From assembly GCA_037833965.1 (NCBI GenBank), contig AP031359.1:3716001-3780000 (forward strand): a stretch of 64,000 nucleotides of DNA, in the 5' to 3' direction. Below are positions 3,154 to 49,144 of this stretch, in pieces. The notes beneath the pieces are model-generated. The model was not told where the DNA came from, made no database searches, and saw only the letters and a program-made list of their open reading frames with translations. Origin of the DNA: Marchantia polymorpha subsp. ruderalis. Its lineage: Eukaryota; Streptophyta; Marchantiopsida; Marchantiales; Marchantiaceae. Both the position numbers and the translations under genes were made by a program. Position 1 is the stretch's first letter. Each line of letters opens with the position of its first letter.

Positions 3154-3158
3154 ATAAA
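3151..3158 (+). terminator. Conserved poly(A) signal of the giant LTR
   Basis: TGAATAAA lies at the end of the LTR-borne frame and carries AATAAA. It is followed by GT-rich DNA (GTGTGCTTGTGTGTCTTG, about 3241-3260), the usual layout of a polyadenylation site. The same octamer occupies the same place in the copies ending at 49144 (plus) and beginning at 24821, 37298 and 38011 (minus). Confidence 0.55.
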
Positions 3159-28676: not shown

Positions 28677-28986
28677 GTCTCTGATTGTGTCTTCCCTGCT
28701 CCAAGAACCTCTTGATTGCAATTCCTTCTCTCTCGCATAATGTCGGGGAGCGAAATGTTTGCTTTGTGCCCTTACCCTCGACGCCCTAACGGTTCCCACA
28801 TGCGCGCAAATTGGCAGTCGCAATGCGTGAGGTTTTTGTCCGACCCTTGGCAAATTCAAATTGTGACCACCAAAGATGTCTGCGCCAATGATCCGAAGAT
28901 CCAATTTCATCGGATCGGATTTCATCTTCCTTTTCCTGGTTAACTAATTTTCATTAAATCTTCTAACTTCTACGACTTAAAACTTA

Positions 28987-28994
28987 AATTTATA
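28987..28994 (-). promoter_or_regulatory. TATA-like box of the giant LTR (copy d)
   Basis: TATAAATT lies about 68-75 nt inside the LTR start. Equivalent boxes occur at 45047 (TATAAG, plus) and 45952-45958 (TATATAAG, minus), each 71-72 nt from its own LTR start. The constant spacing across copies argues for a real promoter element at the very edge of the LTR. Confidence 0.5.
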
Positions 28995-29061
28995 CGTTCT
29001 TTAAAAAATTTGTTTAAATTTTACTTCTTTATGCAAAAATTGAAAAAACTAGGCATCACAT

Positions 29062-29082
29062 GCTTTCCTCCCCATTTGTGAG
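29062..29082 (-). promoter_or_regulatory. Polypurine tract of gypsy element
   Basis: On the minus strand, CAAATGGGGAGGAAAGCA directly precedes the LTR start TGTGATGCC. A near-identical tract, CAAATGGGGAGGGGAGTA, precedes the LTR at 42656. This is the plus-strand priming site expected immediately upstream of a 3' LTR. Confidence 0.75.
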
Positions 29083-31178
29083 CGACCCCGCGAACACTTC
29101 AAGAATAGTAATTCTTCAATCGCCAGCCGTTCACATGAGTCCTCATCATCTAGCCAGAGAGTTCTGCCAATTAAATTGACCCATTCGGAAACACTTCTAT
29201 TACTTGATAGGGTCCCATCCATCGTAGATGTAGCTTCCGTGGAAACATGACATGCCGACTGTCATACAATAAAGCTAGATCTCCTTTGAGCAACGTCACC
29301 GGTCGAATTTATTTGTTGTATGTCTCTTTTCTTTTCAATTGCACCTGCTCCGTACGGTGCATCGCTTCTTGTCTACGCTCTTCCAAGGATAACACCTCCT
29401 ACAACCAATAAAGTTGACTCTCTTCCTTGTCAAGTCATCGGCGATCCAACAGCTAATGAGTGGGCACTTCAAACTCAATAGGAAGGATTGGATGCTTACC
29501 ATATTTTAGGAAGTACGATGTCTGCTTGGTAGTCACCTTCTCTGCCGTACGATAGATCCATAGTGCGGCTGGTAGCTTAGTATCTCAGTCATGTGCATGA
29601 CTTAATGTGAACTTTAGCGATATCTTGTAGAGCAATCCGTTTGAGTTCTCCGTTAGCCCATTTGCCTTTGGGCTGTAAGGGGTTGTCTTTTGATGCTTAA
29701 TCTGGAAGTGGAAAGTGAGGTCCTCAATGTTTGAATTCAAGAAGTGTGTTCGTCAATCACTGACAAGTTCTAGTGGGCATCCGTATCTTGTAATAATAAA
29801 TTCAGACAAGAACTTAGACACGGTCGCCGCATCTTCTCTTCGAGTAGCCTTCGCTTCTATCATCTCGGTGGCATAATCCATTACCACTAGAATATATCGT
29901 CTTTGAGTATGTTTGGTAGCTCGTTGAATCGGCTCCACGAAGTCAATTCTCCATTTTTTGAAAGGTGCTAAGGGCATAATTGGAACTAACGGCCAGCGCG
30001 TAGTAGGAGTTCGTCTTTCTGTTCTTTGATAGTATTCACACCAATGAATGTAATCGTGCACGTCCTTGAACATAGTAGGCCACCAGTATCCTGCATTCAT
30101 AATCTTTGCCACCGTGTTCTTAGTGGCATAATGTACTCCAACATCTTTGGTATGCTTGGCTGCAATAACTCGTTCTACTTTCGTGACCTCCAGAAAGCGA
30201 CATTGCCGCTCATCAAGGAGCAGCTTGAATAGCATCCCGTGTTGGATCTGGTATGGTCCAGCCTTGTGTATAAAGACTGTACGCTGCTCTGCATTCATCC
30301 CCTCTAGACATTATAGAGTAAGTGAGTAGCGGTAAAGGTCCACGAACCGTGAGTGAGGGCTCGCCGCTCGTCAAGGAAACCATCAACCAACTCTGGCTCT
30401 TCAGGTTGCGTCCACAGCCGAGACATGTAATGTGCATTTTCATGATGGATACCCTTCCGAGTCTGTACCCTAAAAGTAAACTCCTGTAGTAATAGTATCC
30501 ACCTTGCAATACGTCCTGATAAGTTGGCTTTCTTCATCAAATGTTGTAGAGCATAATGATCTACATGGAAAACAAAGCCATAGCCTAGCAGATAGTGTCA
30601 AAATTTCATCACCGAAAACACCATACCCAACGCCTCGCGTTCCGTCGTGATGTAATTTTTTCAGCTGCTGACAATTGCGTGCTAGCAAAGTAGATCGGAT
30701 AATCTTTTTTGTTTTCATCTTTTTGGCTTAGCACTATCCCAATGGCGAAGGCTCAAGTATCCACAAATACGTGGTACGTTTTTTCCAAGTCGGGACTACG
30801 TACAACCGGTGCAGAGGTAGCTTGAGTTCTTCAAACGCTCTTTGTTGCTCCTCTCTCCATTCGTAGGGCTTATCTTTCTTCAACAGCTTGGTAAGGCTGG
30901 CCGCAGTGACCGCATATAGATAAATGAATATTCTATAGTAGCCAACGTGCCCCAAGAAGGCTCGCAGCTCCAGAAGGTTCGTTGGTGGCTATAGAGCCAT
31001 GATGACTTTGACCTTCTCTTTGTATACTGCTATTCCTTCGGCGGACACTCGATGTCCTAACAAGATGCCGCTTATCATGAAAAAGAAGCATTCTTCCGGA
31101 TGAAGAGACAACTTAGACTCCCTGCACTTTTTGAATGTCTGCTGTAAGTGACTAAGGTGTTGATCGCAAGGTCCAATT
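29083..31178 (-). pseudogene. Ty3/gypsy pol: RT end, RNase H, integrase (broken)
   Basis: The minus-strand order is RT C-terminal end (MGHVGYYRIFIYLYAVTAAS, 30734-30955), RNase H (30470-30718 and a thumb-like GRIARWILLLQEFTFRVQTR), integrase with a degraded zinc-binding region and the catalytic-core start FKKWRIDFVEPI through ITRYGCPLELVSD (29753-30298), then a C-terminal GPYR-type region near 29200. The RT catalytic block is missing: the element is cut at about 31178 against copia sequence. No chromodomain is evident after the integrase. Many stops are present. It matches the pol at 42680-44970 and belongs to the same family. Confidence 0.82.
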
Positions 31179-31193
31179 TTGCAAGGCCCAATG

Positions 31194-31800
31194 AATTGAT
31201 GGCAAATATTTCACCTTGAATCCAATTTGAGTATCAACTTGTATGCGCCAACTTTTGAAGGTTGAAAACACCTCAGACTTGTGGGTTATAAAATATACCC
31301 ACAAGCGGAGTAATCATCTATAGAAGAAACATAGTACAACTTTTCATATAGTGAGGCAACAAGAGAGGATCCCCACATGTCACTATGTACATACTCTAGT
31401 TTCTCTGTGGAACTATGAGTTCCAATGTCAAAAGCTTGTCTACGCTGTTTTTCCATGATGCAATGTTTACAAAATAACAAGTCAAATTTACCCAAACTAG
31501 ATAACACCTTTGTTTTTTTATCAAGAAGAGACATGTATTGATCACTCATATGGCCTAATCTAGATTGCCATACATAAGACATCTCAACGCAAGATATGGT
31601 TAGGTGAACTTCGTCACAAGTAGTGATGACCTCTAATAAGTACATGTTATTATGCTTGTATCTCCAAAGAATAACCTTTTTATCACATGATCTAATATCT
31701 AACACGCCTTGCCTAGAGCTTCATTCTAAGCCGTGTGAGTCCAACACTCCAAGAGAGATCAAGTTGTCATGTATTTTTGTATATACTAAATTTAAACATC
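31194..31800 (-). pseudogene. Ty1/copia GAG-pre-integrase and integrase start
   Basis: Minus-strand frames give IHDNLISLGVLDSHGLE, then VWQSRLGHMSDQYMSLLDKK, FCKHCIMEKQRRQAF, EYVHSDMWGSSL, YYVSSIDDYSACGYIL, and after a stop HKSEVFSTFKSWRIQV. This is the copia GAG-pre-integrase zinc region followed by the integrase core start. The frame stops at about 31194 where gypsy DNA begins. The RT of a copia element in the same orientation resumes at 24755, so both parts may belong to one element split by the gypsy insertion, with about 300 codons lost between them. Confidence 0.8.
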
Positions 31801-32690
31801 AAGCTAGGGTTTATGTTCCCGTAGAGTATAGGGTCGATAAAGACTTGAAGAATGTCAATTTTTTGAGTCGAGCCTATAGCGTTGGACGAGCGAGTGTCCT
31901 CAAGCGTCGACATGGATTCTCAAGACGAGTGGGTTGGGCTCAATTTATGTATGTAACGGTTTTGTTGCCACTGGAGTATTCAAGACTAATGCGTTTTCTA
32001 GTGAGAAAAAACACGTTATTTCACTCGAATAACACAGTTTCTCGTTAGAGATCGTACAAAGCCGATGAGGATGATTGAGGTTTTGGCGATTTACCTCACT
32101 TGTAAAACTTTGGAGTTTGAAGTGGTTTTGGGCGGTAGGCTGTATAAAAAAAGAAGAATTTTTCGTGGTAATTTTGAGAGTCTAGGTGATTTTTGCACTC
32201 AGATTCCACTAAAAGGTCCAAAGATTTTACTTGGTGGGAGATTTTTCGCGTGTGTGACGATATCGACGGATGTTATGGTCAAGGAAATTTTTGAAATTGA
32301 AGTGCAAAAAGACGAGAGTGTGATTCTTGCTGTCCTTTGGGTTTTTGACTCCGCTGCGTTTGTGTCAAAGTGGATTGAAGACGTGATGGCGTGATTGAAG
32401 TCTCAAGAGCAGGAGTTGATGTAGGTCGATCAAGGAAATGTTCGGCCTACAGGGATTGGATATATAGCAGAAGGACAAAAAATTTAAACGGGAAGAAGAA
32501 GTGAAGTAAATAGAACTTATTTATCAAATTTACGTGTTCGAACAATAGCCGTCTTAAGTAGATTGTGTATTGGAGCTCTGACAAGTGTGGCAAACTTTAT
32601 GGACACCCGAGAAGAGTCTTGTGAAATTGGTGAAAGTCTTGATGTTCAATAGCGGAATTCACTTGGGTTGGACAGTATTGATCATCAATT
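31801..32690. other. Unassigned sequence, probably transposon-derived
   Basis: Two plus-strand frames (31623-32048 and 32065-32394) overlap this region, but neither shows a domain I recognise. The 109-aa frame at 32065 has no obvious homology motif. It lies between the copia integrase and the gypsy pol remnant, and may be LTR or untranslated DNA of the second gypsy element. Confidence 0.4.
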
Positions 32691-33037
32691 TTCCTCTTGG
32701 AGGTTCCAAGAAAAAATGTGAATTTTAGTTGGCTGCAATTCGAAATAAATTTTGCTGGGTAGGAATTTCCGGCCATATGAGGTGAAAGCTAGAAAGGTGC
32801 AGCACTTACTCACATTTTGTTCGCTTGTGGTCGGAGCAATTGATCATCTGGTTGGAATAGTCGATGGAAACTCGACTATGTGAAAACTAAACTCCATAAT
32901 GTCATCCTCTTGGCTAGTGCATGGGTTCCGACTCACACCGTCCAACATTTAAGTTTGCAGCTCCAGGTCTATGCATCACTTGGAAGTCATACTCTTGTAA
33001 GATGAGACCTCATCGTGCCAGCTTCTCTGTAGGCTTG
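32691..33037 (-). pseudogene. Gypsy element 2, end of RNase H region
   Basis: The minus-strand frame reads ARWGLILQEYDFQVMHRPGA and then ANLNVG, followed by DGVSRNP. This continues directly from LKWLMESDKL on the other side of the inserted LTR (36345 onward): GCTTG is the shared 5-bp target site. Integrase of this element is not visible further left. Confidence 0.7.
33033..33037. repeat. Target-site duplication GCTTG (left)
   Basis: GCTTG at 33033-33037 flanks the LTR start and recurs at 36345-36349 directly after the LTR end. Removing 33038-36349 rejoins the gypsy RNase H frame. Confidence 0.88.
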
Positions 33038-36000
33038 TGTGATAGGCCAGTTTTTTCATTTTTTCGGAAATAAGATAGTAGGTTGGGAGATTGATGTCAC
33101 TTTTAACTTTTAGGGTAGAAGTAATTAGATTAGAACAGAATATGTCTGTTACGAGGTAGAAAAGGTAGTAGTAGCAACCTTGAGGTACTCTCAGCCAAAG
33201 CAAGGGCCTTCAGGAGATAAGTGAGGTCCTATTCCGGCGGGACATATCGAGAAGAAGGAAGATTGGGTTCTTCTGAGTATCTAGACAGGTACTCAAGAGA
33301 GGGTACTCACCATGCACGAATGAGGACCTCGGAGCTTTGCGGTTACATGAACGGTGAAGGACACCCGTGGACGTAAAAGATAGTGCCGCACGGGAAAGAA
33401 TTTGAATGGGGGCACCTTCAATTCACACGCATGGGAAACCGTTGCGATGGCGGGGTGTACCCAAGGAGCCAAGAGCTTGACGCTTGCATTTCATGAACAC
33501 ATTGTGCAATCGACGCGGGATAAAGGCGCGGAGACGAGAACGGAGGGAACCAACGATGACGCGACCGATCAAATTGCATGTTCTGCGAGTGCCCGAAGTC
33601 GGATTATGAGCTTATCGCCGCGATTTGATTCTCACAAAGATGGATTTCCTGTTGTGGGATTGGAATTGGACAAGCAATGCGATCATTCACGAGTGGGATA
33701 ACAATGGGTTGACGAAGCCACCGGGCTATCGAACCAATCCTGATACCTGGCAAATTTGGGATTGGAAGAAGGTACTTGGTCGGTGCGCGGGGGATGTCGG
33801 TTAAATTACATTCGATAGAGAGAGTGTTCGAGTGACGAGAGAGGAGGAAAGAGCTTATGTCGACCTGTTCAAGCATCCCCGCACGTAGAAGAATGGTTAT
33901 CGCACAGTGTGGTATCGTGACCGATTGAGGCGAAACATTGAGATGGCTTTGATGCAAATTCTTCATCCGTCTCGATCAACCTATATGATGACTTGGCAGG
34001 TGGGATTCATCGAGAGAGCATTGCGAGGAGATCGTATTCATTGAACGTGTATCTTCTGGACAGCCACCCGGCAACACATCGGGCTGATTCAGGGAGGGTC
34101 TACTTGTTATTTGTCTCCGTTCTTGATTAACTTCTACAGGGGTATGGAAATATTGACTCCTGCAGAGATTGAAGCCTTTCCATCGTGAGAAGTACCACAA
34201 GAAGGAGAAGAAGTGGTGTTGGCTAACGAGGTCAACTCGGACCTTGAGGGCAAACTGCGGAAATCACTCCAGCAGAGGAGAAAGCGGTTTCGAGACCGGC
34301 AAGACTCACAGCCGAAGAAGAAACGAAGAATCGATGAGGCCACCGTAGCAAAGGACCGGTAACGACATGCGGCTCTCATTGAGATGCGATCACCAGACTT
34401 TCGGGCCAGGTCGAAGATGAAGGCTAGGAGGTTGATTCTGGAAGAGTATAGTAGCACGGAGAGTAGAAGGGCTGCGGCAAGAGATCCACCTATGCTGGAA
34501 GCAGGGCCAGTGGCGATGGCATCCACAGAGAAGGAGAAATCGATGGGGAAGAAGCCTTGAATTATAGAAGAACGGCCGACGCCTGTTAAGCCACAACGGG
34601 CTCCAAGGAAAGATAAGCGGAAGGCGGTCTTGACTGAGGAAGTTCCTTTGAGGCAGAATGAGGATCCTTTGGAGGGCATCCGGATGAAGGTCCCTCGGGA
34701 ACGGGCCGCTGAGGTAAAACGATGTCGTCGGACACTTAAGAGGACCTGTGGCATTGGAGGAAGACGTCTTCTAGGCCGTAGAAGACGTAGCAGTAGCTCA
34801 AAGTGGACTGTAGAAGGTAGCCTCACCCGAGACCTCCACTAACACAGTCATACTAGAGACGGGTGAGGAACCCTTAGCAAAAGAGATACAGTCACCAGTC
34901 CCTGGTGCCGCCGATATGTTGTGTGTGCAGGTACTTCCGTTGCTCCAGTACCTCGATCGGAAGCGGGAGAAGTATGCAGATGGCCGCACCAATGAAACCT
35001 ACGTGGAGATAGTGCGTAAGCAAACACGGACCAAGGTAGCGGTGGCGGCTGAGGTCGCCGCGAAGGAACGTAAGAGTTAGCCAACAGAAGCAAGGTACCA
35101 AGCACTTCAGAAGAGGCTCGCTAAGGAAGTTGAGAAGCGAAGACATTCGGAGCAAGTTTGCGAGGGTCTTCGAGAGGACGTGGAGAGAGCCAAGTGCGCA
35201 AGTGTGGATCTCTTGAGGAGGCTAGAGGCATGCAGGACCGCATACGACGCCGAGTCATTGAAGGTTGATGAGCTGTCAGCTGCCACAAAGAAGCGGGAGC
35301 AAGAGTACCAAATTGAGTTGGCGGTGAGGCCGAAGAAGCTAATCAAGTACTAAGCTGCGCGGATTTTGAATCTGGAATTAATCGAGAAACTAGAGGCGCA
35401 GTGAAGTGAACTGAGCACGTAACGGTTGCAAGCTAAGGAGCAGTTATACGAGGTGGAAACGAAATTGATGGAGGCCGAGGGAAAGAATCGGCAATAATCC
35501 AAGGAGACCCGTGACGTCTTAACTGCGAGAGTGGAGCAGTGTTTGCGCGGGTATGTCTTGTGGCAAATTGAATCACACAACGGACTTTGGTTACGCAAGA
35601 TTGAGTATTGTGCAGCCGAATTGATAGCGCGAAGCGGACGGCGACATCGCCGGTTAGCCAAGAAGCTCGAATCGCATCTTACGAGATCGCGGGACGCGGT
35701 GGCAAATCTGGAGTTAGAATTAGTAGGCGTTTTGAGAAGATTAGGTCTAGAGCGGAGGTTAGAGGGAGCGGCAACTGCCGACTCCGCAAGTGTAGGACCT
35801 GTTCGGTGCTCACATCGTAGCGGGTAACAGTTTTGGTTGTTAGGAATAAAGTAGTCCAAAACATTGGCCTTGGGGGTTTTTTCTCAATTTAGGTTCTCAC
35901 TTTTGAGAGGTACTTTGGTTTGTCAAAGATACCGCATCCAAAGTAGGGGCCCCAATTTGAATGTTCTAAAATAGCGATTAGCTAGTGACAAAATTTAAGC

Positions 36001-36344
36001 AAAATTGCGATTGGCAGCTGCCAATCGCATGCAGGTACTCTTAGTGTACTACTTGGGAATTTTCCCCCCTGAATCTTAAGTTGAAGTTGCGATCAACCTC
36101 AGAGTTGTTACAATTGCTTGTTTCAGGTGTGTGTGTGTGTGTGTCTTACGCTGCATTGTGTGTCCTCCGAGAGACCTCCAAGTCAAACACTTGTAATACT
36201 TCTAGGAGTGACAGTAGCTTGAGAATTCAAACTCCTAAATAGACCGTTAAGAACGTGACAATTGGTACTCTTTGAGTTGTTTTCGTCCTCGTGGGATTGT
36301 ATCTTTACCACTATGCTCCATTTTGGTATTTATTTGTCATTACA
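33038..36344 (+). mobile_element. Solo giant LTR, subfamily B, with TSD
   Basis: A 3307-bp unit starts TGTGATAGGCCAGTTTTTTC, ends GTCATTACA, and is flanked by GCTTG on both sides. It sits inside a gypsy RNase H coding region. There is no second LTR, no primer-binding site and no gag-pol, so it is a solo LTR. It carries a diverged version of the LTR-borne frame, an AATAAA near 35844, and the conserved terminal string CCATTATGCTCCATTTTGGT-type end. Its sequence differs strongly from the other copies while the layout is the same, which supports a distinct subfamily. Confidence 0.8.
33406..35826 (+). pseudogene. LTR-borne coiled-coil protein, subfamily B, broken
   Basis: The frame starts near ATGGGGGCACC. 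Landmarks in order: WQIWDWKKVLGRCAGDVG (about 33757), TWQVGFIERALRGDRIH (about 33990), FLINFYRGMEILTPAEIEAF (about 34124), a basic region (RRKRFRDRQDSQPKKKRRI, about 34280-34330, nuclear-signal-like), the core VLPLLQYLDRKREKYA (about 34932), and coiled coil to about 35500. The protein differs from subfamily A at most positions yet keeps the order and the core, as expected if the protein sequence was once under selection. Several stops are present. Its function is unknown. Confidence 0.6.
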
Positions 36345-37297: not shown

Positions 37298-37454
37298 TGT
37301 GATAATCATCAAATACCAAAATGAAGCATAATGATATAGATTTGTTCCCATAGAGACAGATGCAACACTAAAAGTCACGATTTATCACTAGTTAACATTC
37401 TATTGAATAGTTTAACTTCTTAGGTACATGTCACTCCCAAAATACACTACTCGA

Positions 37455-37495
37455 TTCCGGCCTAAAAAGGCCGGAAAGGCCTTTTTAGGCCGGAA
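37455..37495. repeat. 41-bp inverted repeat (18-bp arms)
   Basis: TTCCGGCCTAAAAAGGCC, a 5-nt spacer GGAAA, then the exact reverse complement. The other LTR copies have no such structure at this place, so it arose within copy e. Confidence 0.93.
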
Positions 37496-37970
37496 AAGGC
37501 AGAGTATAAACACACACACACACACAAAATGAAACTTTTCCAATCGACACCTGTGGGAATCGCCTTCAACTCCACACTATGATTTCATGGAGAAACTTCC
37601 CAGAATTGCACACTTCCGGCTCATTGACCCGAATATCCAAACCCAAATTTGCTTAAATTCCGAATAGCCCCCCGCTTACTCAAAACATCCAAGTTGGACA
37701 TACACAGCTCTAGATGCGGTATCTTTGACAAACAAGAGCGCACCATGCACGGTAACAAGACACACAAGCACACAAATGCGCACAATGGGTACAGGTAATA
37801 GCCAAGACAAGCCAATTGATAGAAAGCCCCCCAAGGAAAGAGCCTTGGATCTCTTTATTCACTCCAACCTCCTAGATATCTCAACCGCCTCAAGGAATCT
37901 GCTATGAGGTGCGATGCCATCCGACGTAGCGGTTAAAACGTTCTTTGAGCTTTCGTCGGCTTCTAACCTA

Positions 37971-38004
37971 CGCTATACGTTTACAATCTTGTAAACGTAT
38001 AGCG
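37971..38004. repeat. Hairpin at the LTR insertion junction (14-bp arms)
   Basis: CGCTATACGTTTAC, loop AATCTT, then GTAAACGTATAGCG. The left arm and the first five loop bases belong to the target LTR, and AATCT is the target-site duplication. The right arm is part of 21 extra bases (37990-38010) between the duplication and the inserted LTR. Confidence 0.92.
37985..37989. repeat. Target-site duplication AATCT (left)
   Basis: AATCT occurs here and at 41526-41530. Between them lie 21 filler bases and the LTR 38011-41525. Joining the flanks recreates the ACGTTTACAATCTCCATTTC order seen in other copies. Confidence 0.78.
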
Positions 38005-38010
38005 TTTACT

Positions 38011-41000
38011 TGTAATGACAAACAAATACCAAAATGGAGCATAATGGTATACATTTGATCCCACGAGTACAAAAACAACCACAAACAAAAGTCATGATTT
38101 GTCACAGAATATTATTCTAGTAAAGAGTTTCACTTCTTAGGCCAATGCCACTCCTAGAAGACACTACCCAGCTAGGGCCGAAGATCTGCAGAGTAGTGCA
38201 TAACCACACTCATAGCCTGAAACTTTTCCAAACAACGCCTGTAGGAATCGCTTGCAATTCCACACTTATATTTCAGGGGGAATACTTTCCAGCATTGCAT
38301 ACATCCCAACACACTGACCAGAATACTCTGATTGAACTTGCTTCAATTCCAAGGAGCCTCGACTACTCAGAACATTCAAGTCGAATACACATAACTCCTT
38401 ATGCGGAAACTTCGACTAATAGGAGCGCACCGTGCTCAATGTCTGGATCACACACCAACACACATACACAATGGATACAGGCTTACAGTCAAGACAAGCC
38501 AACTGACAGAAAAGCCCCCCAAAGAAAGAGCCTTGGATCTCTTTATTCACAATGGCAACTCTAGGATATCAACCGCCTGAGGCGAATTGGTCTCAGGGGC
38601 TGTGCCGTCCGATGAAGCGGTTACGGTGTCATCTGAACTTACATCTACTCCTATCCTACGCAACACGTTTACTTCTACATTCTGGCGCGCCTCATTCAAT
38701 TCCTCTAAAAATATATTAACTAACTCCACAATTTGTTTGTGTTCGGCGGATCCGCTGGTCTTGGCGCTCATCAACCGCCCTCTCCAGCAAATCTAACTTC
38801 AGGCACTTCACCGTTTGCAATCCCCACATCGCGAACCCGTTTAGACACTTCTCTAACCGCAACTTCAATGTGTCGGTTGTCTCGTCCCGTAGATGATGGT
38901 AGGCCTCCTCTGCCTTTTCCATTCTCCTTCGCGACTCTTGCGATCTCATGTCCACCTTACCTAACTGCTTCCGCAACCGTCAACATTCCAATTCAACCTT
39001 CAATTTACATTCAACAGCCAAAGTTCTGGCCGATTCACAATCTATCAATTTCTTGACCCAATTCGCCAATATCTCCTCATGCTCTCCTCACCCCCTATGT
39101 CAGACTTGCTGATAGCTCCTCTACACGTCGGAATTTTGTCTCACACTTACTCTCAATCTCCAAAATCTTGCTACGAAGATCTTCTTCCGCCGTCTACACC
39201 TCTGCAATTTTGCCCTGAAGTTCTTCGGCGATACGAACTTCTTCGGCTCTTCGGGCCTTCAACAAAGCAAGTTCCTCGATATGTTTCTTCTCTCGCTCCT
39301 CCGTAGTGGTGATCATTCGCTCCGATTGCTTAATTGCCTCATCATATGCTTCCCTAGATTTCTCCAACCTTCCGAGCAAATCCACTGTCATCTTCTACCC
39401 GGTTTCGTTAGACTTGCGAAGTTCACCACAGGTCTCCTCCAACTCTGCACATCGTCCGGATTCCTTCTCTAGATTCAATTGCAGTACTACGCACTTAATT
39501 CCTTCTCTCGAAACTGGGCTTCTCGCTCCTGCAATGTCACCTTCACTGCCGCGCACTCGGTTGTCAAGGTTGCCGCTCGCTCCCGTGCCAATTCAGTCGC
39601 GGAATCCCACTCCCTCCTTACTGCAAGTGCTCTCTTGAGCTGCGTTTTATTTCTTATCATCTCTACATAAAATCCTGCCTCCTTGGATATAGCATACTTC
39701 TCTCTCTTCCAATCCAGATACTTCAGTAATGGGACCACACTATCCTGCAAGAAATCGGGGAAAGAAACGACTAACTCCTTCGATTCCTCCCGCGAAGTCT
39801 TCGTCGCTTCTACCGGTCTCACTTCTTCCGTAGGGGATGACGGCAGTGCACTGTCTGGGGCATCTACCACCGTCCCTCCAATCTGTCGCACAATCTGTTC
39901 CAGTTTTTTGTCGCTTAACGTTAGCTCCTTTACCAATTCCTCTCTCGTCTTCAGATGTGGTATTCCTTCACCCTCCGCAGTTTGTGTCTGCTCCGAAGAA
40001 AGAGAATTCCGACTAACTATCTCCATTCCCTCCTTCGAAGATTCCGCCAGTGCTTTTGCTGGAACTTCAATCAATACCCCCGAAGATTCTTTCCTCCCTA
40101 CAGGCTGTGTTGAATCGCCCGCTGCGACTTCGGGTGTACTCACAATCGGGGCAACTGTCTTTTCTACGCTGCTATGCGATACTTCTCCTCCCACTAACGC
40201 CCGATTCGCCCTCTTCTTTGGTCTTGCGCGAGTTTTCGACTGCCTGATCACATCTAATTCCGTTTTCGTTCTTCTTACTTCAAGTGCCAAATCTCCCTCG
40301 TCATCGCTCACTACTCTCCTTCTCTTCGTCACTCGTCTCTCCGGCTTTTCCCGTCTCCGCACAACTTCCATCTGAACGGGTCCTCGAGCTGTCGTGTGTG
40401 ATGGAATGGAGGGTTGACGGATATCGTCCTCGGTCCCTTTGCTGGACTTGGTCGTCACGACTTTGGAAATCGCTTCTCCTCCTCTCTTTTTAGCAACCCC
40501 ATGCTTCAGTAGAAAATCACCAAGAATGGATTGAGATGATTGACCAATGGTCCTATCTACCGATCGGATGCATTTACCCAGACAAGATCGTGAAAGATCC
40601 TTGCCCAATGTACTCCTTGTTAATTCAAGATTCGTTCAAAGAAACCTACATGCTTGGCCGTCACATACGTCGTACGTGCTGGTCGCAAGATGTGCATAAT
40701 TTCCAACGCTATCGCTCTTCTCTTCGGATCAATGTAATCCAATGTCTTCCACCCGTTCGTTTCCTATCTCCCGGAATTGAAGAGTGTTCCGTAAGAGAAT
40801 TCTTCGATGCGCGTAAGTCCCACGCTACCCTTTTCAAACAAAAGGTCTCCGTCGCTACCTGCGCATGGTCCCATCATCTTCGTCTAATGCTCAATTGTCA
40901 AGAGCATGGGATTACCTCAAAGCTCCACGCCCTCGGTCTGTTTCTTATCGATTATCTCGTTGCAAATACTCGCCGTGACGCAAGTCCAATTCTAAAAGAG

Positions 41001-41525
41001 GAATTCAAGTCGTAACTCGCTCAGCTCCCGTCCGAAGGGTCGCAATTCTTCGTAGGGCACCTTCATGGGAATCAATTTCTGCACCTTGTCACTCTTCTTT
41101 GGCCCCATGACTTTGATTCGCGTCTTCGTTGCTAGCAAGGTCGGTCGATTTTGCTCTTTCTCTCGCTCGCTTGTTCTTGCTCGATATCGCAATGTTTGTG
41201 CGAGGACTCCTGCTACTGCCCTTACCCTTGAAGCCCTAACATTACCTCCTCACGCGCCCACTAGAATTTCCGACTTGTGCGAACGTCTTTCGGCTCGTTG
41301 CGCGATTCGAAATTGAATCCTATGTCTTTGCCGCAGACGCAGCTCTTGCAAGGTCCAGAAAAGGCTGCGCTGAAGATCCAAAGATATTCGGACGTAGACC
41401 AATTCTAACTAATTCTATCATTTCTCCTCATAAGCTGCTCATTCTAACTTGTACAACTACTTTCTAGACAAATATCTTTTAGTTTTGTTGATTTTTAAAG
41501 AAAAACGGAAAAACTAGGCACCACA
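38011..41525 (-). mobile_element. Solo giant LTR with TSD (copy c)
   Basis: A 3515-bp minus-strand unit runs from TGTGGTGCCTAG (41525) to CATTACA (38011). The right flank AATCT (41526-41530) matches 37985-37989 on the left. It lies inside another giant LTR (copy e). No second LTR or gag-pol is present. It contains the best preserved version of the LTR-borne frame and the TGAATAAA signal at 38542-38549. A degenerate TATA position (TGTACAAG) lies about 71 nt from the LTR start. Confidence 0.8.
38550..41108 (-). pseudogene. LTR-borne coiled-coil protein, best preserved copy
   Basis: The frame starts at ATGGGGCC (41108: MGPKKSDKVQKLIPMKVP, then YEELRPFGRELSELRLEF). A 373-aa uninterrupted piece (39487-40608) carries a basic region (RREKPERRVTKRRRVVSDDE), a second basic patch KTRARPKKRANR, the motif LTLSDKKLEQIVRQIGGTVV, then the core FPDFLQDSVVPLLKYLD and a coiled coil. 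Shorter pieces at 39194-39391, 38716-38976 and 38547-38774 continue the coiled coil to the TGAATAAA. The paired basic clusters look like nuclear localisation signals, and the E/K-rich heptads suggest oligomerisation. Both are inferences. No enzyme motif is visible. Original length was about 850 codons. Confidence 0.65.
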
Positions 41526-42656
41526 AATCTCCATTTCTATATTGTCTCGCGTCTCTCTCAATCCAGAAGAGAAAGAATTAACTAACTAAACTAACTGTTT
41601 GTGCCTCGCTGATCTTCATACTCATCAACCGTACCTCCAGCAAATCTAACTTCAGCCACTTCAGCGTTTGCACTTCCCACATCACAAATCCGCGTAGGCA
41701 CTTCTCTACATGCAAACGCATACCGCCAGTCGTATCATCTCGCAGCTGTTGGTTGCCGCCTCCGCCTTTTTCACCCTCATCTTCGACTCCTCCAACTGCA
41801 CAGCAAGTAACTTCAACTGCTCTTGCAACCGACCACAATCCGATTCAAATCTTACTTTACATTTGACCTCTGAAGACATGGCCGCTTAGCAATTTGCCAA
41901 TTTCTTAGCCCAATCAGTCAATTCGATTGCGTGCTTCCGGAGTACACACGCCAGATTCGCCATGAGCTCTTCCGCGCGTTGTAACTCCTTATCACCATCA
42001 TCAGTAAGCTCCGCAATCATACTCCGAAGTTCCACTTGCTTCGTCTTCGTCAGAGCAATCTAACCCCAAAGATCTTCGGCTATCCGTTCCTCTTTGGCTC
42101 TTTGGCTTCTCTCAAAATTCTAGGTGTAATTCGATAAGCTTTCGCCTATAGGGTCGCAACTCCGCATAAGGCTCCTTCAGCGGAACCAATTTTGTGCACC
42201 TTGGCTATCGTGAGCGGCGCCATGTTTCCAATCGTCTCTTCAGAGCTATCAAGGTCGAGTTCAATTCACTCTCTATCTCTTGATATCGCAATGTCGCCGC
42301 GAGTGTTCTTGTTGTGCCCTTACCCTCGATGCCCTAACGTTCCTCACATTCGCGCGAATTGGTACTCTCGGCGCGTGCGTATCTTGTCCGGCCCTTTGCA
42401 AATTCAAATTAAAATTTGTCGTCTTCGCCAAAGGCTTGGATGTTGCATACTCTAAAATGGCTGCGCTGATGGTCCGAAGATGTGAAGGTCTTTGGCCGAA
42501 GGCGAATTCCACTTTCCTTCTCTAACTAGCTAAATTTCTCGTAATTCTCCTATCTCCTTCGACTTAGGACTTGTATGCATACTTTCTGACATGAATATGT
42601 TTAAGTTTTTGTTATTTATGCAAGAAAACAAAAAAACAAAAAAACAAAGCACCACA
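41526..42656 (-). mobile_element. Giant LTR copy e, 5' part (3' LTR of gypsy element 3)
   Basis: The sequence begins TGTGGTGCTTTG at 42656, directly after the polypurine tract of the gypsy pol. It contains the leader, the start of the LTR-borne frame (MAPLTIAKVHKIG near 42224), then, after an internal deletion near 42118, the C-terminal coiled coil (41578-41838). It continues at 37989 across the nested LTR. The total preserved length of about 1.8 kb shows that about 2.4 kb of the coding region has been lost. Confidence 0.75.
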
Positions 42657-42680
42657 TACTCCCCTCCCCATTTGTGAGCG
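42657..42680 (-). promoter_or_regulatory. Polypurine tract of gypsy element 3
   Basis: On the minus strand, CTCACAAATGGGGAGGGG and AGTA immediately precede the LTR start TGTGGTGC. This is the plus-strand primer site and identifies the following LTR as the 3' LTR of this pol. Confidence 0.8.
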
Positions 42681-44970
42681 ACCCCGCGAATACTTCAGGA
42701 ATAGTACTTCTTCACTATCCAACCGTTCACGCAGGTCCCTAGCATTTGTCTTGAGAGGTCTGGTAACTGTATCAATCCATTCGGAAACACTTTTACTACT
42801 CGATAAGGTCCCATTCATCATAGGTGTAACATCCTGGGGAACCTTACATATTGACTATCATAAAGTAAAGCTAGATCTCCTTTGAGCAGAGTTTCCGACT
42901 AGATTTGTTTGAAGTAAGCTTCCTTTTTTTTCAGCAGTATCTGCTCCGTTTGATGCTTCACTTTTTGTCTGCGTTCTTTGAAGGATAGCATCTTCTACAA
43001 TTGATGAAGCTGACTTTCTTCCTCACCAAGTCTTTGGCGTTCTAATAGCCGATGAGTAGGTACTTCAAACTCAATCGGTACAATGGGATGTTGATCATAC
43101 GTTCGAAAATACGGCGTTTGTTTGATGGTCACCTTCTCGGTGGTACGATAAGCCCATAGTGCGGCTGGTAGCTTGGTATCCCAATCATATGCATGACTTA
43201 CTGTAACTTTCAGTAGTATCTTGCAAAGCAACCCGTTTGATTTCTCCATTAGTCCATTCGCCTTTGGGTTAAAGGGGGTCGTCTTTTGATGCTTAATTTG
43301 GAAGTGGAAAGTAAGGTCTTCAATCACTGAATTCAGGAAGTGTGTTCCTCTATCACTGACCAGTTCCAATGGGCATCCGTATCTCGTGATAATAGATTCA
43401 AACAGAAACTTTGATACGGTCACCGCATCATCTATTTGAGTGGCCTCTGCTTCTACCATCTTGGTAGCATAATATGTGCCTACTAGAATATATCGTCTTT
43501 GGGTCTGCTTCGTAGCTGGTTGGATTGACCCCACAAAGTCAATTCTCCATTTCCCGAAAGGTGCTAAAGGCATAATGGGCATCAATGGCTACTGCGTAGT
43601 GGGAGTTGGTCTCCACACTTATCTGGAGTTCTCTCCTCTCGCAGTTATCACATCGTTGAATGTAATCATGTACATCTTTAAACATCGTCGGCCACCACAC
43701 ACACATGCACATTTTGAATGTATACTACATTCAAAATCTTTGCCACTGTGTTCTTGATGGCTTAATGGCCTCCTAAACCTTAAGTGTGCATTGATGTGAT
43801 AACTCGTCCTACTTCTGTGACCTCCAGACAGCGACACAGTCGCTCATCCGGGAGTAGTTTGAATAGTACCCTATGTTGAATTTGGAGGAACTAGCCTTAT
43901 GGATAAAGACTGTACGCTGTTCTGCATCCATTCCTTCAGGACATTGTAGAGTAAGCAAATAACAGTAGAGATCCGCGTATCGTGAGTCCCGACTCGCCGT
44001 CATCTGGAAGAGTTGCTCATCTGGAAAATCATTAGCCAACTCTCCTTAGGTTGTGTCCATAGTCGAGACAGATAGTGTGCATTTTCATGATGGATCCCTT
44101 TCCGTGTCTGTACTGTAAAGATGAACTCCTGGAGCAGTAACATCCACCTTGCAATTCGTCCAGATAAGTCGGCCTTCTTCATTAGATGTTGCAGGGCATA
44201 ATGGTCTACATGAAAAATGAATTTGTAGCCTAGCAGATAGTGTCGGAATTTCCTCACCGAGAACACCATTTCCAACGCTTCTCATTCCGTTGTGGTGTAG
44301 TTCTTTTCTGCCGCCGACAATTTCCTGCTAGCAAAGAAGATCGGATTGTCCTTCTTGTTTTCATCCCTCCGGCTTAGCACTACTGCAATGGCAAAGGCCA
44401 AAGTATCAATGAATACGTGGTTTGTCTTTTCCCAATCCGGACTACGCAGAATCGGTGCAGAGGTTAGTTTCTCCTAAAGTTCTTCGAATGCCTTTTTGTT
44501 GCTACTCTATCCATTCATAGGGCTCATCCTTCCTCTGCAGCTTGGTGAGACTAGCTGCAGTGATTGCATACATATTGATAAATTGTCTATAATAGCCCAC
44601 ATGTTTGAGGAAGGCCCGAAGCTCCCGAAGATTCGTTGGCGGTTCCTAAGCCAAGATGACTTTGACTTTTTCCTCGTCCACAGCTATTCCTTCGGCGGAC
44701 ACTTGATGGCCCAACAAAATGCCACTTGTCATGAAGAAGAAGCACTTCTCCGGGTGAAGAGACAATTGTGACTCTCGGCATTTGTCGAACATATGTTGCA
44801 AGTGACTGAGGTGCTGATCACAAGGTCCGAAGACACATAAATCATCAATGAAGATCTTCAAAAATTTCCTAAGATGGTCCTGAAAAATGGTTGTCATCAT
44901 TCGTTGAAAGGTCGCATGAGCGTTACTTAATCCGAAGAGCATCTTATGGTATGCATAAGTTTCCCAATCG
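42681..44970 (-). pseudogene. Gypsy element 3 pol: RT, RNase H, integrase (broken)
   Basis: Minus strand: RT from MLFGLSNAHATFQRMMTTIF and FIDDLCVFGPCDQHLSHL (catalytic FIDD, 44646-44942), RNase H (FRHYLLGYKFIFHVDHYALQ, then GRIARWMLLLQEF, about 44000-44275), and integrase core (FGKWRIDFVGSI, ITRYGCPLELVSDRGTHFLN, PFNPKANGLMEKSNG, 42995-43585). The D-D-E catalytic core is recognisable. The final part has the GPYRVVKVFPNG-type C-terminus, with no chromodomain seen. Its RT N-terminal portion lies at 49150-49470, beyond an inserted LTR flanked by GTAGT. Confidence 0.85.
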
Positions 44971-44975
44971 GTAGT
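44971..44975. repeat. Target-site duplication GTAGT (left)
   Basis: GTAGT precedes the LTR start at 44976 and recurs at 49145-49149 after the LTR end. Removing 44976-49149 rejoins the gypsy RT frame. Confidence 0.85.
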
Positions 44976-45375
44976 TGTGGTGCTTAGTTGTTTTGTATTT
45001 TACAAATTAACAAAAACTTAAACATATTCGTGTTAGAATGTAGATGTATAAGTCTTGAGTTGTAGAAGTTAGAAGAATTATGGAAAAATTAGCTAGAAAG
45101 AGAAGGAAAGTAGGCTTCGCCTTTGGTTGAAGACTTTCAGATCTTCGGACCTTCTGCGCAGTCGTTTTGGAGAATGCAAAAGCCGGGTCTTCGGCAAAAA
45201 CGATGAAGTTCAATTTGAATTCGCGAAGTGCCGGTCAATGTTTGCACTCGCCGAGGGTACCAATAGCGTGCGTGAGAGGAATGTTAGGGCATCGAGGGTA
45301 AGAGTGCGACGACGACATTTGCCCCGACATTGCGATATTAAGCGAGAACGGAAGAGAGCAAAATCGATCGACTTG

Positions 45376-46028
45376 TGTAATGACAGATAAATACCAAAAT
45401 GGAGCATAATGGTATAGATCCGATCCCACGAGGACAGAAACAAACACAAAAGTCACGACTTGTCACAAAATAGCATTCTATTATGAAGTTTTACTTCTTA
45501 GGCCAATGCTACTCTCAGAAGACACTACTCAGCTAGAGCCGAAGACTCACAGGGTAGTGCAAAACCGTATTCACAACCTGAACCTTTTCCAATCAAAACC
45601 TGTGAGAATCGCAAGCGATCCCACACTTATATTTCAGGGGGAAAACTTCCCAGCACTGCATACATCTCAACACACTGACCCGAATACTCAAACCTGAACT
45701 TGCTTAAATCCCGCAGTAACCCCAGGCTACCCTAACATTGCCTTCTCCCGCGCCTCGTAGAACTCCCGACGCTTGCGAACATCGTCCGGCCCGTTGCATG
45801 ATTTGAAATTGATTTCGATGTCTTCGCCGAAGACGCAGCTCTTCGTACGTCCTTGAAAGACTACGCCGAGGACACAAAGATCCAAAGATCTTCGGACGTA
45901 GACAAATTCTAACTAATCCTATCATAACTCCTATAAATCTACTCTTTCCAACTTATATACCTATCTTCTACAGAAATATGTTTATGTTTTGTTAATTTTT
46001 AAAGAAAAACAAAAAAGTAGGCCCCACA
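45376..46028 (-). mobile_element. Internally deleted solo LTR with TSD ACTTG (copy b)
   Basis: A 653-bp minus-strand unit runs from TGTGGGGCC (46028) to CATTACA (45376). It is flanked by ACTTG at 45371-45375 and 46029-46033. Only the first ~298 bp and last ~355 bp of the giant LTR remain, joined near 45730. The whole coding region is gone. A TATATAAG box (45952-45958) remains about 71 nt from the LTR start. Removing it restores the leader GATCGACTTGGTTAGCAGC of copy a. Confidence 0.82.
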
Positions 46029-46060
46029 ACTTGGTTAGCAGCGAAGAGGCAATTAGAGAG

Positions 46061-48628
46061 ATGGCGCCACCCAAGACGCCCAAGGTGCGGACTTTAGTTT
46101 TGTTGAAAGTGCCATACGAAGAATTGCTACCCTATTGACGGTAGCTCAACAAATTTCATCTAGATTTCCTCGTGGAATTGGAATTGCATGTCAGCGAGCA
46201 TTTGTAAGGAGATCATGGACAAGAATCGGAACGAAGGAGAGGATCTCCGCGGCAATCCGATGCTGTGGACAATTGAGCACTGGACGAGTGTGCTGGAGCC
46301 GTGTGTCGGGGACGTCGGGGATTATATGTTCGTGAAGGATAGCGTGAAGATAACCCGCGCAGAAAAATTCACTTTCGCCCCTCTTCCGGAACGCGCGATT
46401 AGAAACGAATGGGTGGAAGACCGCAGATTATAAGGATCCGAAGAGACGTGCAATTGCATTGGAAGTCATGCAAATCCTGCGACCGCAGCGCACAACTTAT
46501 GTCACTTCTTGGCAGGTCGGCTTCTTCGAGCGCGTCTTGAAGGGAAGTCGAGTACATTGGGCGAGGATCTTTCATGATGCAATTTGGATCAATGCGAGTG
46601 CCTGATGAGAGGAAGGATTGGTTAATCGCCTATCCTCTTACAAAGTGAATTTCTATCAGGGGATGGGAGTACTCACAAAGGAGTAGGAGAAGCGATTCTC
46701 GAAAGAACTGGAAATTCTGGCAATTGAGTCCAGCAAGGAGACTGAGAAAGAAGATAGTGCCCAAATTGAAGATCCACCTTAGAGGACAACGTGCGGACCA
46801 GTACAGGTGGATGTTCTTCCGCCACGAGAGCGGCCAGAAAGGCGACTGGCAAAGAGACGGAAGATACTTACAAACGACGAGGAAGACCTATTACTGGAGT
46901 CGCGGATGGCAGAGACTGAGATAGCGGAAATCAGGCAGTCAAGGACTCGAGCTAGGCCAAAGAAGAAAGCGAATCGCGGGAGGGTTGTGTCAGATTCTTT
47001 AGACAGCAGTGTGAAGAAGACGGATGCATCAATTTTGGTTTCGGACGAAGACAAATAATGAGCCTACTCTTCAAGTGTTGGAAGGAGAACCTTCGGCGGT
47101 ACCAGCTGAAGTCTTAATGGAAGTAACAGGGGAACCTTCGGAGAAGAGGATGGAGACAGCTAGTCCAAGTTTACTATCTTCAGAGCAGATGCGATTTGTG
47201 GAGAGCGAGGACGTACCTCAACCGAAAACAAGTGAAGAGCTAGCAAAGAAGCTCACGCTAAGTGAGGAAATACTTGAGCAGATTGTTGCACACGTGGGCG
47301 GGACGGTAGGAGACATCATTGATATTTCAGTGCCGCCATCACCTGAGGAAGAAGGAAGATTTGAAGTAGCGGAGAAGACTTCGGAGGAGGGACCAAAGGA
47401 GTTAGAGGTTGCCTTCCCTGATTTCTTGCAGGATAGCGTAGTACCTTTATTGAAGTACTCAGACAAGAAGAGGGAAACATATACTGTGATGAGGGAATCT
47501 AGATCTTATGTGGAGCTTGTAAGTAATAGTACTAAGCTCAAGAGGGCAGTGGCAGCGAAGAGGGAGTGGAATTCTGCAATTGCGATGGCGAAAGAACGAG
47601 TTGCAAGCTTGACAGCCGAGTGTGCGATCACGAGGGCGACATTGCAGGAACAAGAAGACCGACTTTGACTGAAGGAGATGGAGTGTGAGGTCCTACGACT
47701 AAACTTGGTGAAGAAGTCCGATCTTTGAGCGACATTGGAACAGGATTGTAGCAGTCTTCATACCGCCAACGAGACTGTACATAAGGTATCCGAAATGGAT
47801 TGGAGGTTTGTGCGAAAGATTGGAGGCATCCAAGAGGGCCTACGCCGCGGAAGTGCAACGTGTGGAGGAATTGATTGTGGCTGCAAAGAAACATGATCAA
47901 TTGCACGCCAAAGAATTAGGTAAGGCGGAAGGGCGAAGAGCCGAAGAGGCATGGATTGCCGAAGATCTTTGGGGATAGATTGCTATGACGAAGACGAGGC
48001 AAGAAGAACTTCGGAGTAGGATTGCAAAGCTCATGGATGGTCGTGACAAGGAGTTTAAACGCGTAGAGGAGCTTACGGCAAGTCTGGCGGAGGCACTCCG
48101 GAAGCACGAAGGCGAATTGATATATTGGGCCAAGAAATTGGCAGATCGTGAAGCGGCCAGATCTTTGGAAGTCAAATGTAAACTAAGGATTGAATTAGAA
48201 TGCGAACGGTTACGAGAGCAGTTGAAGAGAGTTGCTCTGTAGCTAGAGGAGACGTAGAGGCTGCACACCGCTTGTTGCAAGACGAGACGACCGACACATT
48301 GCGGTTGTGTGTTGAGAAGTGCTTGCATGGATTTGCAATGCGGAAATTGCAATTGGTTAAGTGGTTGAAGTTGGATTCATTGGAGCGACGTCTGATGAGT
48401 GCGAAGGGCAGCGGATCCGCGTGGCACAAACAGTTAGTAGAATTGGTTAATTCTTTTTCTGAGGGATTGAAAGAGGCGCGAGAGAATGTAGAGATAGAGA
48501 TTGTAAACGTTTTGCGTAGGTTAGGAGCCGACGGAAGCTCAAAAGACGTTGTAACCGCTACGTTGGATGGTACCGCGAGAGTAATTCACCTCAGGCGGTT
48601 GAGATTCCTAGGAGATCGGAATGAATAA
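46061..48628 (+). pseudogene. LTR-borne coiled-coil protein (copy a), broken
   Basis: The frame opens at ATGGCGCC (46061: MAPPKTPKVRTLVLLKVP). Landmarks: LRGNPMLWTIEHWTSVLEPC (about 46240), VKITRAEKFTFAP, WQVGFFERVLKGSRVHWARI (about 46510), YKVNFYQGMGVLTKE (about 46640), basic EKRPERRLAKRRK-type region (about 46830), KTRARPKKKANR-like patch, LTLSEEILEQIVAHVGGTV (about 47250), core FPDFLQDSVVPLLKY (47414), coiled coil to about 48500, and a stop overlapping AATAAA at 48626. Total span is about 855 codons with several stops and frameshifts. It is the clearest end-to-end guide to the gene's original layout. The function is not known. Confidence 0.65.
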
Positions 48629-48629
48629 A
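48622..48629 (+). terminator. Poly(A) signal overlapping the stop codon
   Basis: TGAATAAA: the TAA stop of the LTR-borne frame (48626-48628) is part of the AATAAA hexamer. GT-rich DNA (GTGCGTGTCTGTGTGCTTG) follows at about 48702-48720. The arrangement is conserved in the other copies. Confidence 0.55.
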
Positions 48630-49144
48630 GAGGCTCAAGGCTCTTTCCTTGGAGGGCTCTTCTGTCAATTAGCTTGTCTTAGCTGTCCATTTGTATCCAT
48701 TGTGCGTGTCTGTGTGCTTGTGTGTCTTGCCACTTAGCATGATGCGCTTTGGTTTGTCAAAGATACCTGATTTGGAGCTGTGATTGTCCAGCTTGAATGT
48801 TCTGAGTCGCTGGGGGCTATTTGGAATTTAAGCAAATTCGAGTAAGGGTATTCAGGTTAGTGAGCCCGGAATATATTTGGGAAGTTTCCCCCTGAAATCA
48901 TAGTGTGGAGTCCAAGACGATTCCCACAGGTGTCAATTGGAAAAGTATTAGGTTGTGAATGTGATTATACTCTGCTTTTTGGCCGTAATCGAGCAATGTT
49001 TTATGGGAGTGACATCGGCCTAAGAAGTAAAACTCATCAATAGATAGTTACTTCGTGACAAAGTGTGACTTTTGGTGTTGCAACTATCTTTGTGGGAACG
49101 AATCTAAACCATTATGCTCCATTTTGGTATTTATTGTTATCACT

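What the first reader, a model, noticed from the sequence alone, without database searches (positions are those of the whole stretch)
44976..49144. A giant LTR that carries its own ~850-codon coiled-coil gene
The same TG...CA unit (TGTGGTGCC to TTACA or TTATCACA, up to ~4.2 kb) occurs as solo insertions with 5-bp target duplications: GTAGT (44976-49144), ACTTG (45376-46028), AATCT (38011-41525) and GCTTG (33038-36344). None has a second LTR or gag-pol. Each full copy contains a coding region between a TATA-like box and an AATAAA. By structure this is an LTR, yet most of it is a gene. Large LTRs with frames are known in some plant elements, but I recognise neither this protein nor this layout.
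Basis: partly seen in the sequence, partly recalled or inferred. Interest (0 to 1): 0.85.

Follow-up and report, generated by a model that had tools for sequence, protein, structure and literature searches.

The report
Retrotransposon LTRs carrying their own gene
In a liverwort genome, a family of Ty3-type retrotransposons carries an unfamiliar, selectively maintained gene of about 760-860 codons inside its long terminal repeats, so many solitary repeats left behind in the genome are also copies of that gene.

Summary
The unit at 44976-49144 is a real LTR with a gene inside it. It is a 3.51-kb LTR inflated by a nested 653-bp LTR, sitting as a solo LTR (TSD GTAGT) in the reverse-transcriptase gene of a Ty3/gypsy element. 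"No gag-pol, no second LTR" holds for the four solo copies but not for the family: in the window the LTR begins directly after a purine tract and integrase at two places; elsewhere its 3' end abuts a primer-binding site and gag; one element on contig C1 has LTR-gene sequence on both sides of a ~6.14-kb interior. Of 17 complete copies, 16 have AATAAA 522-542 bp from the 3' end, but only 1 a TATA motif. The gene evolved under constraint (median dN/dS 0.26-0.32 between diverged copies). Its protein has an N-terminal domain with no credible Pfam or structural match and a long charged, probably coiled-coil tail. Every named homologue listed is from Marchantia polymorpha. I think it is an accessory factor acting in trans for its own family; that role is inferred. 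New variant of a known kind.

The parts
44976..49144 (+). Solo LTR (gene-bearing), 3.51 kb plus a nested 653-bp LTR and its 5-bp duplication; inserted in the RT gene of a minus-strand Ty3/gypsy element
   Evidence: TSD GTAGT on both sides; RT ORF 44649-44999 minus matches RVT_1 E=9.1e-13 and continues beyond 49149 (read by eye)
44971..44975 (.). Target-site duplication GTAGT, left copy
   Evidence: right copy 49145-49149
45376..46028 (-). Nested short LTR without the gene (653 bp), TSD ACTTG
   Evidence: its two halves match the 5' ~320 bp and 3' ~365 bp of the unit
46061..48628 (+). LTR gene, ~856 codons, decayed in this copy
   Evidence: tblastn of P0077 residues 1-745 in three frames over 46061-48574; 9 stops in 699 aligned codons
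48624..48629 (+). AATAAA at the end of the gene, 521 bp before the LTR 3' end
   Evidence: same place in 16 of 17 complete copies
42657..44975 (-). Ty3/gypsy pol (RT C-terminal part, integrase) directly upstream of an LTR start at 42656; purine tract TGGGGAGGGGAGTA before the LTR
   Evidence: rve E=1.8e-8 above Pfam cut-off, RVT_1 E=9.1e-13; junction
37298..42656 (-). 3' LTR of that gypsy element, internally deleted, interrupted by the 37990-41525 insertion
   Evidence: self-comparison; junctions
37990..41525 (-). Solo gene-bearing LTR (38011-41525) with 21-bp filler, TSD AATCT; gene at 38550-41108
33038..36344 (+). Solo LTR of a divergent subfamily, TSD GCTTG, gene at 33568-35731
   Evidence: tblastn 39.5-39.6% to P0077 and P0080 over the N-terminal part
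24821..29060 (-). 3' LTR, apparently a composite of two subfamilies, starting directly after PPT AAATGGGGAGGAAAGCA and pol
   Evidence: gene pieces 25363-28676
29061..33037 (-). Ty3/gypsy pol interior upstream of the 24821-29060 LTR (integrase H2C2 and rve in ORF 29753-30310)
   Evidence: Integrase_H2C2 E=4.8e-9, rve E=3.1e-6 (27.8 bits, below its cut-off of 32.6); 77-78% DNA identity to 42639-44828
231..3690 (.). Two further LTR fragments, minus 231-1556 and plus 1557-3690, the former apparently inserted into the latter

Best explanation
The unit is the long terminal repeat of a family of Ty3/gypsy retrotransposons, most likely of Marchantia polymorpha. A full LTR is laid out as: ~450-530 bp of 5' non-coding DNA, a sense-strand gene of ~760-860 codons, AATAAA at the gene's end, ~520-610 bp of 3' non-coding DNA, then PBS and gag-pol (5' copy) or flanking DNA (3' or solo copy). 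A complete element thus carries the gene twice, and LTR-LTR recombination, which removes gag-pol, leaves solo LTRs that still hold gene, polyadenylation signal and presumably promoter. The protein has an N-terminal ~230-residue domain of its own kind, in many copies a basic nuclear-localisation-like stretch, a conserved VVPLLKYLD-type segment and a long charged coiled-coil-like part. Shown: LTR anatomy, LTR-gene sequence on both sides of one interior, constraint on the gene, and age (subfamilies only ~40% identical in protein share the layout). Inferred: the protein is an accessory factor that works in trans, most likely in the nucleus on its own family's LTRs (activation, protection from silencing, or integration), in the way that foamy-virus Tas (recalled) or the VANDAL protein VANC serve their elements. 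Likelihoods: LTR identity 0.95; gene functional in active lineages 0.9; trans-acting nuclear factor 0.4.
For: LTR identity: LTR start follows integrase and/or purine tract in the window at 29061 and 42657 and in L055 and L075; LTR end followed by a spacer and PBS in L070, L045, L034, in L051 and in 5 of 100 listed LTR ends (L045 and L051 are two of these five); element A on C1: PBS-pattern match at 1415864-1415889, gag match 1414342-1415898, integrase match ending at the LTR start ~1409759, gene C-terminus in the 5' LTR (L074) and gene N-terminus in the 3' LTR (L075). Of 17 complete copies, 5-bp TSD exact in 7, one mismatch in 4, two not testable, two or more mismatches in 4, three of which are PBS- or PPT-flanked LTRs where no TSD is expected. 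Selection: 1747 pairs among 67 aligned copies (some copies counted twice through overlapping loci): median dN/dS 0.26-0.32 in the bins above dN 0.1, 0.46 for the 38 closest pairs; third-position share of differences 0.43-0.47 against 0.40. Subfamilies ~40% identical in protein share the place in the LTR. Near full-length gene models P0077 (762 aa) and P0076 (776 aa) exist. No strongly hydrophobic membrane-like stretch (maximum 19-residue mean 0.86-1.39 in four proteins).
Against: No expression, localisation or binding data. A KRRK/KRKW-type basic motif was matched in 8 of 21 inspected proteins; several are truncated models, and P0076 has KRRR at the place instead. The coiled coil is inferred from composition and a modest heptad signal only. 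No TATA box was found, so the promoter is not located. Nearly all aligned copies are decayed (stops in 64 of 67). A 653-bp LTR without the gene occurs with its own TSD: either it moved without the gene or lost it after insertion. Both LTRs of one element were seen only in part (about 1.2 kb each), RT was not read in that element, and the two LTRs' identity was not measured. The N-terminal model is of middling confidence (mean pLDDT 74.5) and matched no fold, so structure gives no function. The loci examined are top hits to a C1 query, not a random sample.
Confidence: 0.6

Rival explanations
1. The gene is a passenger: a host gene fragment once captured into the LTR and copied along without function.
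For: Most copies are decayed (stops in 64 of 67 aligned copies); no function known; no credible Pfam match.
Against: dN/dS 0.26-0.32 between diverged copies and third-position excess; N-domain and VVPLLKYLD-type segment kept across subfamilies of ~40% identity; no named homologue outside Marchantia among those listed (73 of the 193 hits were not listed, and the search reaches only relatives sharing short exact words).
Confidence: 0.08
2. The LTR protein is a structural or assembly partner (Gag-like or particle-associated coiled-coil protein), made from the LTR in addition to the internal gag.
For: Long coiled-coil-like tail suited to oligomerisation; retroelement accessory proteins often act in particles (recalled).
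Against: The element has its own zinc-knuckle gag-like ORF downstream of the PBS (L070 3796-4449, zf-CCHC below cut-off, E=0.017); no similarity of the N-domain profile to the gag-region ORF L070 2417-3133 (hhalign probability 0.1 of 100); basic nuclear-localisation-like stretch in 8 of 21 proteins.
Confidence: 0.25
3. The unit is an independent non-autonomous transposon (not an LTR) that moves with help from gypsy integrase and by chance often sits beside gypsy genes.
For: Most complete copies are solitary with TSDs (11 of 15 testable exact or one mismatch); only 5 of 100 and 5 of 39 listed LTR ends abut a PBS or interior.
Against: Abutment is exact and recurrent: PPT then LTR start at 4 loci, LTR end then PBS at several, both sides in element A. 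An excess of solo LTRs is ordinary (recalled).
Confidence: 0.03
4. The copies are a host gene family, domesticated from LTRs and kept by selection on the plant rather than on the element.
For: NCBI carries many as annotated hypothetical proteins; constraint signal.
Against: Copies are scattered, decayed, nested in other elements (window; L006/L076 inside a copia pol by eye) and concentrated on contig C1 (29 of the 69 LTR ends with 0-1 mismatch, on 2.3% of the assembly), which fits an accumulating transposon.
Confidence: 0.07

Closest known systems
Ty3/gypsy LTR retrotransposons of plants
   Same: LTR with TG..CA ends, 5-bp TSD, PBS after the 5' LTR, PPT before the 3' LTR, gag-like ORF, RT before integrase, integrase next to the 3' LTR.
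   Different: A ~760-860-codon gene under constraint fills ~70% of the LTR.
Mouse mammary tumour virus sag (recalled; not read here)
   Same: A protein-coding gene lies inside the LTR of a retroelement.
   Different: sag is ~320 codons, a superantigen with a membrane segment (recalled); here the protein is larger, without a membrane-like stretch, in a plant retrotransposon, and AATAAA follows the gene within the LTR. Sequence similarity was not tested.
Foamy-virus tas/bel and lentiviral nef (recalled)
   Same: Accessory genes overlapping LTR sequence; Tas acts in trans on the LTR.
   Different: Those overlap the 3' LTR only in part; here the whole gene lies inside the LTR.
VANC of VANDAL transposons (PMC13317346, passage seen)
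   Same: Proposed analogy only: an element-encoded factor that acts on non-coding motifs of its own family against silencing.
   Different: VANDAL is a DNA transposon (MULE); no sequence similarity was tested; the role here is inferred.
LARD elements and long plant LTRs (recalled)
   Same: LTRs of several kilobases.
   Different: Those long LTRs are non-coding as I recall them.

Membership tests
Ty3/gypsy LTR retrotransposon | Paired LTRs flanking the interior in direct orientation | tested here: met
   Element A on C1: LTR end (L074) and LTR start (L075) in the same orientation around ~6.14 kb; each LTR seen over about 1.2 kb only, outer ends and TSD not seen
Ty3/gypsy LTR retrotransposon | TG..CA termini and 5-bp TSD | tested here: met
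   7 exact, 4 one-mismatch, 4 poor, 2 not testable of 17; window TSDs GTAGT, ACTTG, GCTTG
Ty3/gypsy LTR retrotransposon | tRNA primer-binding site next to the 5' LTR | tested here: met
   TGGCGCCGYTGYCGGRGA-type site 17-25 nt after the LTR end in L070, L034, L045; the complement of the common form, TCCCCGGCAGCGGCGC, follows a T-loop-like GTTCGA at 19 places. tRNA-Asp is recalled; the anticodon check did not complete
Ty3/gypsy LTR retrotransposon | Polypurine tract before the 3' LTR | tested here: met
   AAATGGGGAGAGGAGT(A/T) or variants at L055, L075, window 29061 and 42657
Ty3/gypsy LTR retrotransposon | RT upstream of integrase, integrase last | tested here: met
   RVT_1 at 44649-44999 and rve at 42998-43588, both minus, then LTR start 42656
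Ty3/gypsy LTR retrotransposon | Gag with CCHC knuckle | tested here: inconclusive
   zf-CCHC E=0.017, 15.6 bits, below cut-off 20.8
Retroelement with a gene wholly inside the LTR (as MMTV sag) | ORF within the LTRs and expressed | tested here: inconclusive
   Position met; expression not testable here
VANC-like or Tas-like trans-acting factor | Protein acts on the element's own non-coding DNA | not testable with these tools
   Analogy only

The most novel reading that the evidence does not exclude
The LTR is itself a self-contained, selectively maintained gene unit: promoter, a 760-860-codon trans-acting protein of a new fold, and polyadenylation site all inside the repeat, so that solo-LTR formation, normally the death of an element, turns it into one more dispersed helper gene for the family.
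Probability: 0.35. Interest if true: 0.78.

Novelty: new variant of a known kind. Interest (0 to 1): 0.63.

Why it matters
LTRs are normally regarded as non-coding control DNA and solo LTRs as dead relics. Here most of the LTR is a gene that selection has kept, so relics may stay active as suppliers of a protein to the family. It offers a test, in a well-used haploid model plant, of how an element gains from a gene that is doubled in each copy and survives loss of gag-pol. It also means that many 'hypothetical proteins' in the public Marchantia gene set are LTR genes.
Full report
What was checked. The window is G000:C1:3716001-3780000 of a 241-Mb assembly in 9 contigs. Every named protein homologue listed is Marchantia polymorpha subsp. 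ruderalis: 65 of 75 (the other 10 are unnamed 'lgn' entries), every named one of the best 120 of 193, 21 of 21. The plant is therefore most likely that liverwort. C1 is only 5.59 Mb and may be a sex chromosome (inference).

The observation. TSDs GTAGT, ACTTG and GCTTG are exact; AATCT is exact but separated from the LTR end on one side by a 21-bp filler. The 44976-49144 unit is a 3.51-kb LTR that contains a 653-bp short LTR (45376-46028, opposite strand) plus its duplication. It lies in the RT gene of a minus-strand gypsy element: the ORF 44649-44999 minus matches RVT_1 (E=9.1e-13), and the rest of RT reads on beyond 49149 (by eye).

It is an LTR. Self-comparison of the window shows two blocks of pol, 29043-31174 and 42639-44828, 77-78% alike, each ending where the unit's 5' end begins; both junctions carry a purine tract. 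In L070 a unit's 3' end is followed after 17 nt by the PBS TGGCGCCGCTGTCGGAGA and then by a gag-like ORF. L045 and L034 show the same order, as does L051 by its flank and PBS match. A search with the L070 interior found 43 matches among 40 scored of 812 candidates, many starting at base 1, that is, at the LTR junction. Pairing gag and integrase matches by coordinate gives five interiors of ~6.1 kb on C1. For one, element A, I fetched 1.2 kb at each LTR: the 5' LTR holds the gene's C-terminal part, AATAAA, the LTR end and the PBS spacer; the 3' LTR starts after AAATGGGGAGAGGAGTA and holds the gene's N-terminal part. The LTRs were not read whole, their outer ends, TSD and mutual identity were not seen, and the RT of this element was not read.

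Complete copies. Of the 69 loci held (top hits to queries from this window, plus L069, so not a random sample), 17 contain the whole unit. TSD: 7 exact, 4 with one mismatch, 4 with two or more (L045 and L051 are followed by a PBS, L055 is preceded by pol and PPT, L067 is unexplained), 2 not testable. AATAAA lies 522-542 bp from the end in 16 of 17. TATAWA occurs in the first 480 bp of 1 of 17. A further copy of a younger subfamily (L006 with L076) has TSD ATAAA inside a copia pol (by eye).

Abundance. The LTR-end pattern gives 192 matches with up to 3 mismatches, control 0. Only 100 were listed, cut in contig order; of these, 5 are followed by a PBS. Of the 69 with 0 or 1 mismatch, which are listed completely, 29 lie on C1. 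Of 39 listed ends of a younger subfamily (the window's own row and four partial rows left out), 5 abut the interior. Solo LTRs and 3' LTRs therefore seem to dominate, though degraded PBSs would be missed.

The gene. Gene model P0077 (762 aa) reads from an N-terminal MAPTKKSEKVRKLVPLKVPYEDLRPF start to a ...VDIPEMPL end; P0076 (776 aa) starts alike and stops somewhat earlier. In this window gene pieces lie at eight places. The 33038-36344 unit belongs to a subfamily ~40% identical to both P0077 and P0080 over the N-terminal part; it has the gene in the same place between LTR ends, so the arrangement is old. Across 67 aligned copies (at least 250 codons each, some present in two overlapping loci) and 1747 pairs (pairs under 2% non-synonymous difference dropped as the same copy), 1700 of which fall in the bins, median dN/dS is 0.46 for the closest 38 pairs and 0.26-0.32 in the six other bins. 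This is what one expects if lineages that moved kept the protein and each inserted copy then decayed; 64 of the 67 copies hold stops. The alignment was guided by one protein and the method is simple counting, so the figures are approximate.

The protein. No Pfam family is above its cut-off in the LTR-gene ORFs tested; in a scan of 58 family members the commonest match was a weak Cu_amine_oxidN3 hit in 7 (best E=0.00043), taken for chance. The N-terminal domain was modelled from 58 rows: mean pLDDT 74.5, ten-residue block means 87-96 over residues 71-140 and 151-170, mainly helical; no Foldseek match with E<=0.001 and one weak second-look row. A basic KRRK/KRKW-type stretch after the domain was matched in 8 of 21 inspected proteins. 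The rest is rich in E, K, R, Q, L and A; a coiled coil is likely but was not predicted by a dedicated program. The N-domain does not resemble the gag-region ORF of L070.

Mechanism. With AATAAA right after the gene and the ATG ~450-530 bp into the LTR, each LTR can be a full transcription unit; the promoter is not located. If the genomic RNA uses the same ends, the gene lies in R and the full-length RNA begins with it, which would hinder gag translation unless a second start is used; this is open. One 653-bp LTR without the gene, with its own TSD, either moved without it or lost it afterwards, so it cannot settle whether the gene is needed in cis. A diffusible protein, kept by selection, distinct from gag and pol and present in every gene-bearing LTR, is best explained as a factor acting in trans on the family. 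I put 0.4 on a nuclear factor acting on the LTRs and 0.25 on a particle or assembly role.

Compared with what is known. It meets the tested features of Ty3/gypsy elements, with the gag zinc knuckle below cut-off. Genes inside LTRs are known in retroviruses such as MMTV (recalled). I found no plant case in the searches named in Tried and rejected, but the library is partial. Hence: new variant of a known kind.

Noticed in passing
37985-38011: Between TSD AATCT and the LTR end lies a 21-bp filler (37990-38010) whose first ~16 bases are the inverted copy of the adjacent host sequence ACGCTATACGTTTACA, as if the integration end had been repaired by fold-back synthesis.
   Followed up: partly
24821-29060: This 3' LTR looks like a mosaic: its 5' part and the gene up to ~27042 are of an old subfamily, the part from ~26970 down is of a younger one, and a stretch of the gene occurs twice (27559-27042 and 26769-25363).
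   Followed up: partly
45376-46028: A 653-bp LTR with its own TSD that keeps the 5' ~320 and 3' ~365 bp of the long LTR but lacks the gene; non-autonomous form, ancestral form or later deletion.
   Followed up: partly
contig C1 of the assembly: 29 of the 69 LTR ends with 0-1 mismatch lie on C1, which is 5.59 of 241 Mb; the family seems to have piled up on this small, perhaps sex-linked, chromosome, though the pattern came from a family first seen on C1.
   Followed up: no
P0044, P0020, P0160: Public Marchantia gene models join integrase (P0044 by eye, P0020 by Pfam) or RNase H (P0160) pieces with LTR-gene sequence: transposon genes annotated as hypothetical proteins.
   Followed up: no
23068-23779: Tandem array with a period of about 102 bp (self-comparison).
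   Followed up: no
5448-6094: Isolated fragment of the LTR gene's N-terminal domain near a copia-like RNase H ORF (copia by eye).
   Followed up: no
13149-14935 and ~53373-53741: Probable host genes beside the nested elements: a heat-shock-factor-like gene (minus) and a Kelch/BSL-phosphatase-like exon (plus); both named by eye, from recall.
   Followed up: no
L073:3-2507: An open 835-codon RT-RNaseH-integrase ORF on C9, ~60% identical in DNA over short stretches to the window pol; its LTR was not reached.
   Followed up: partly
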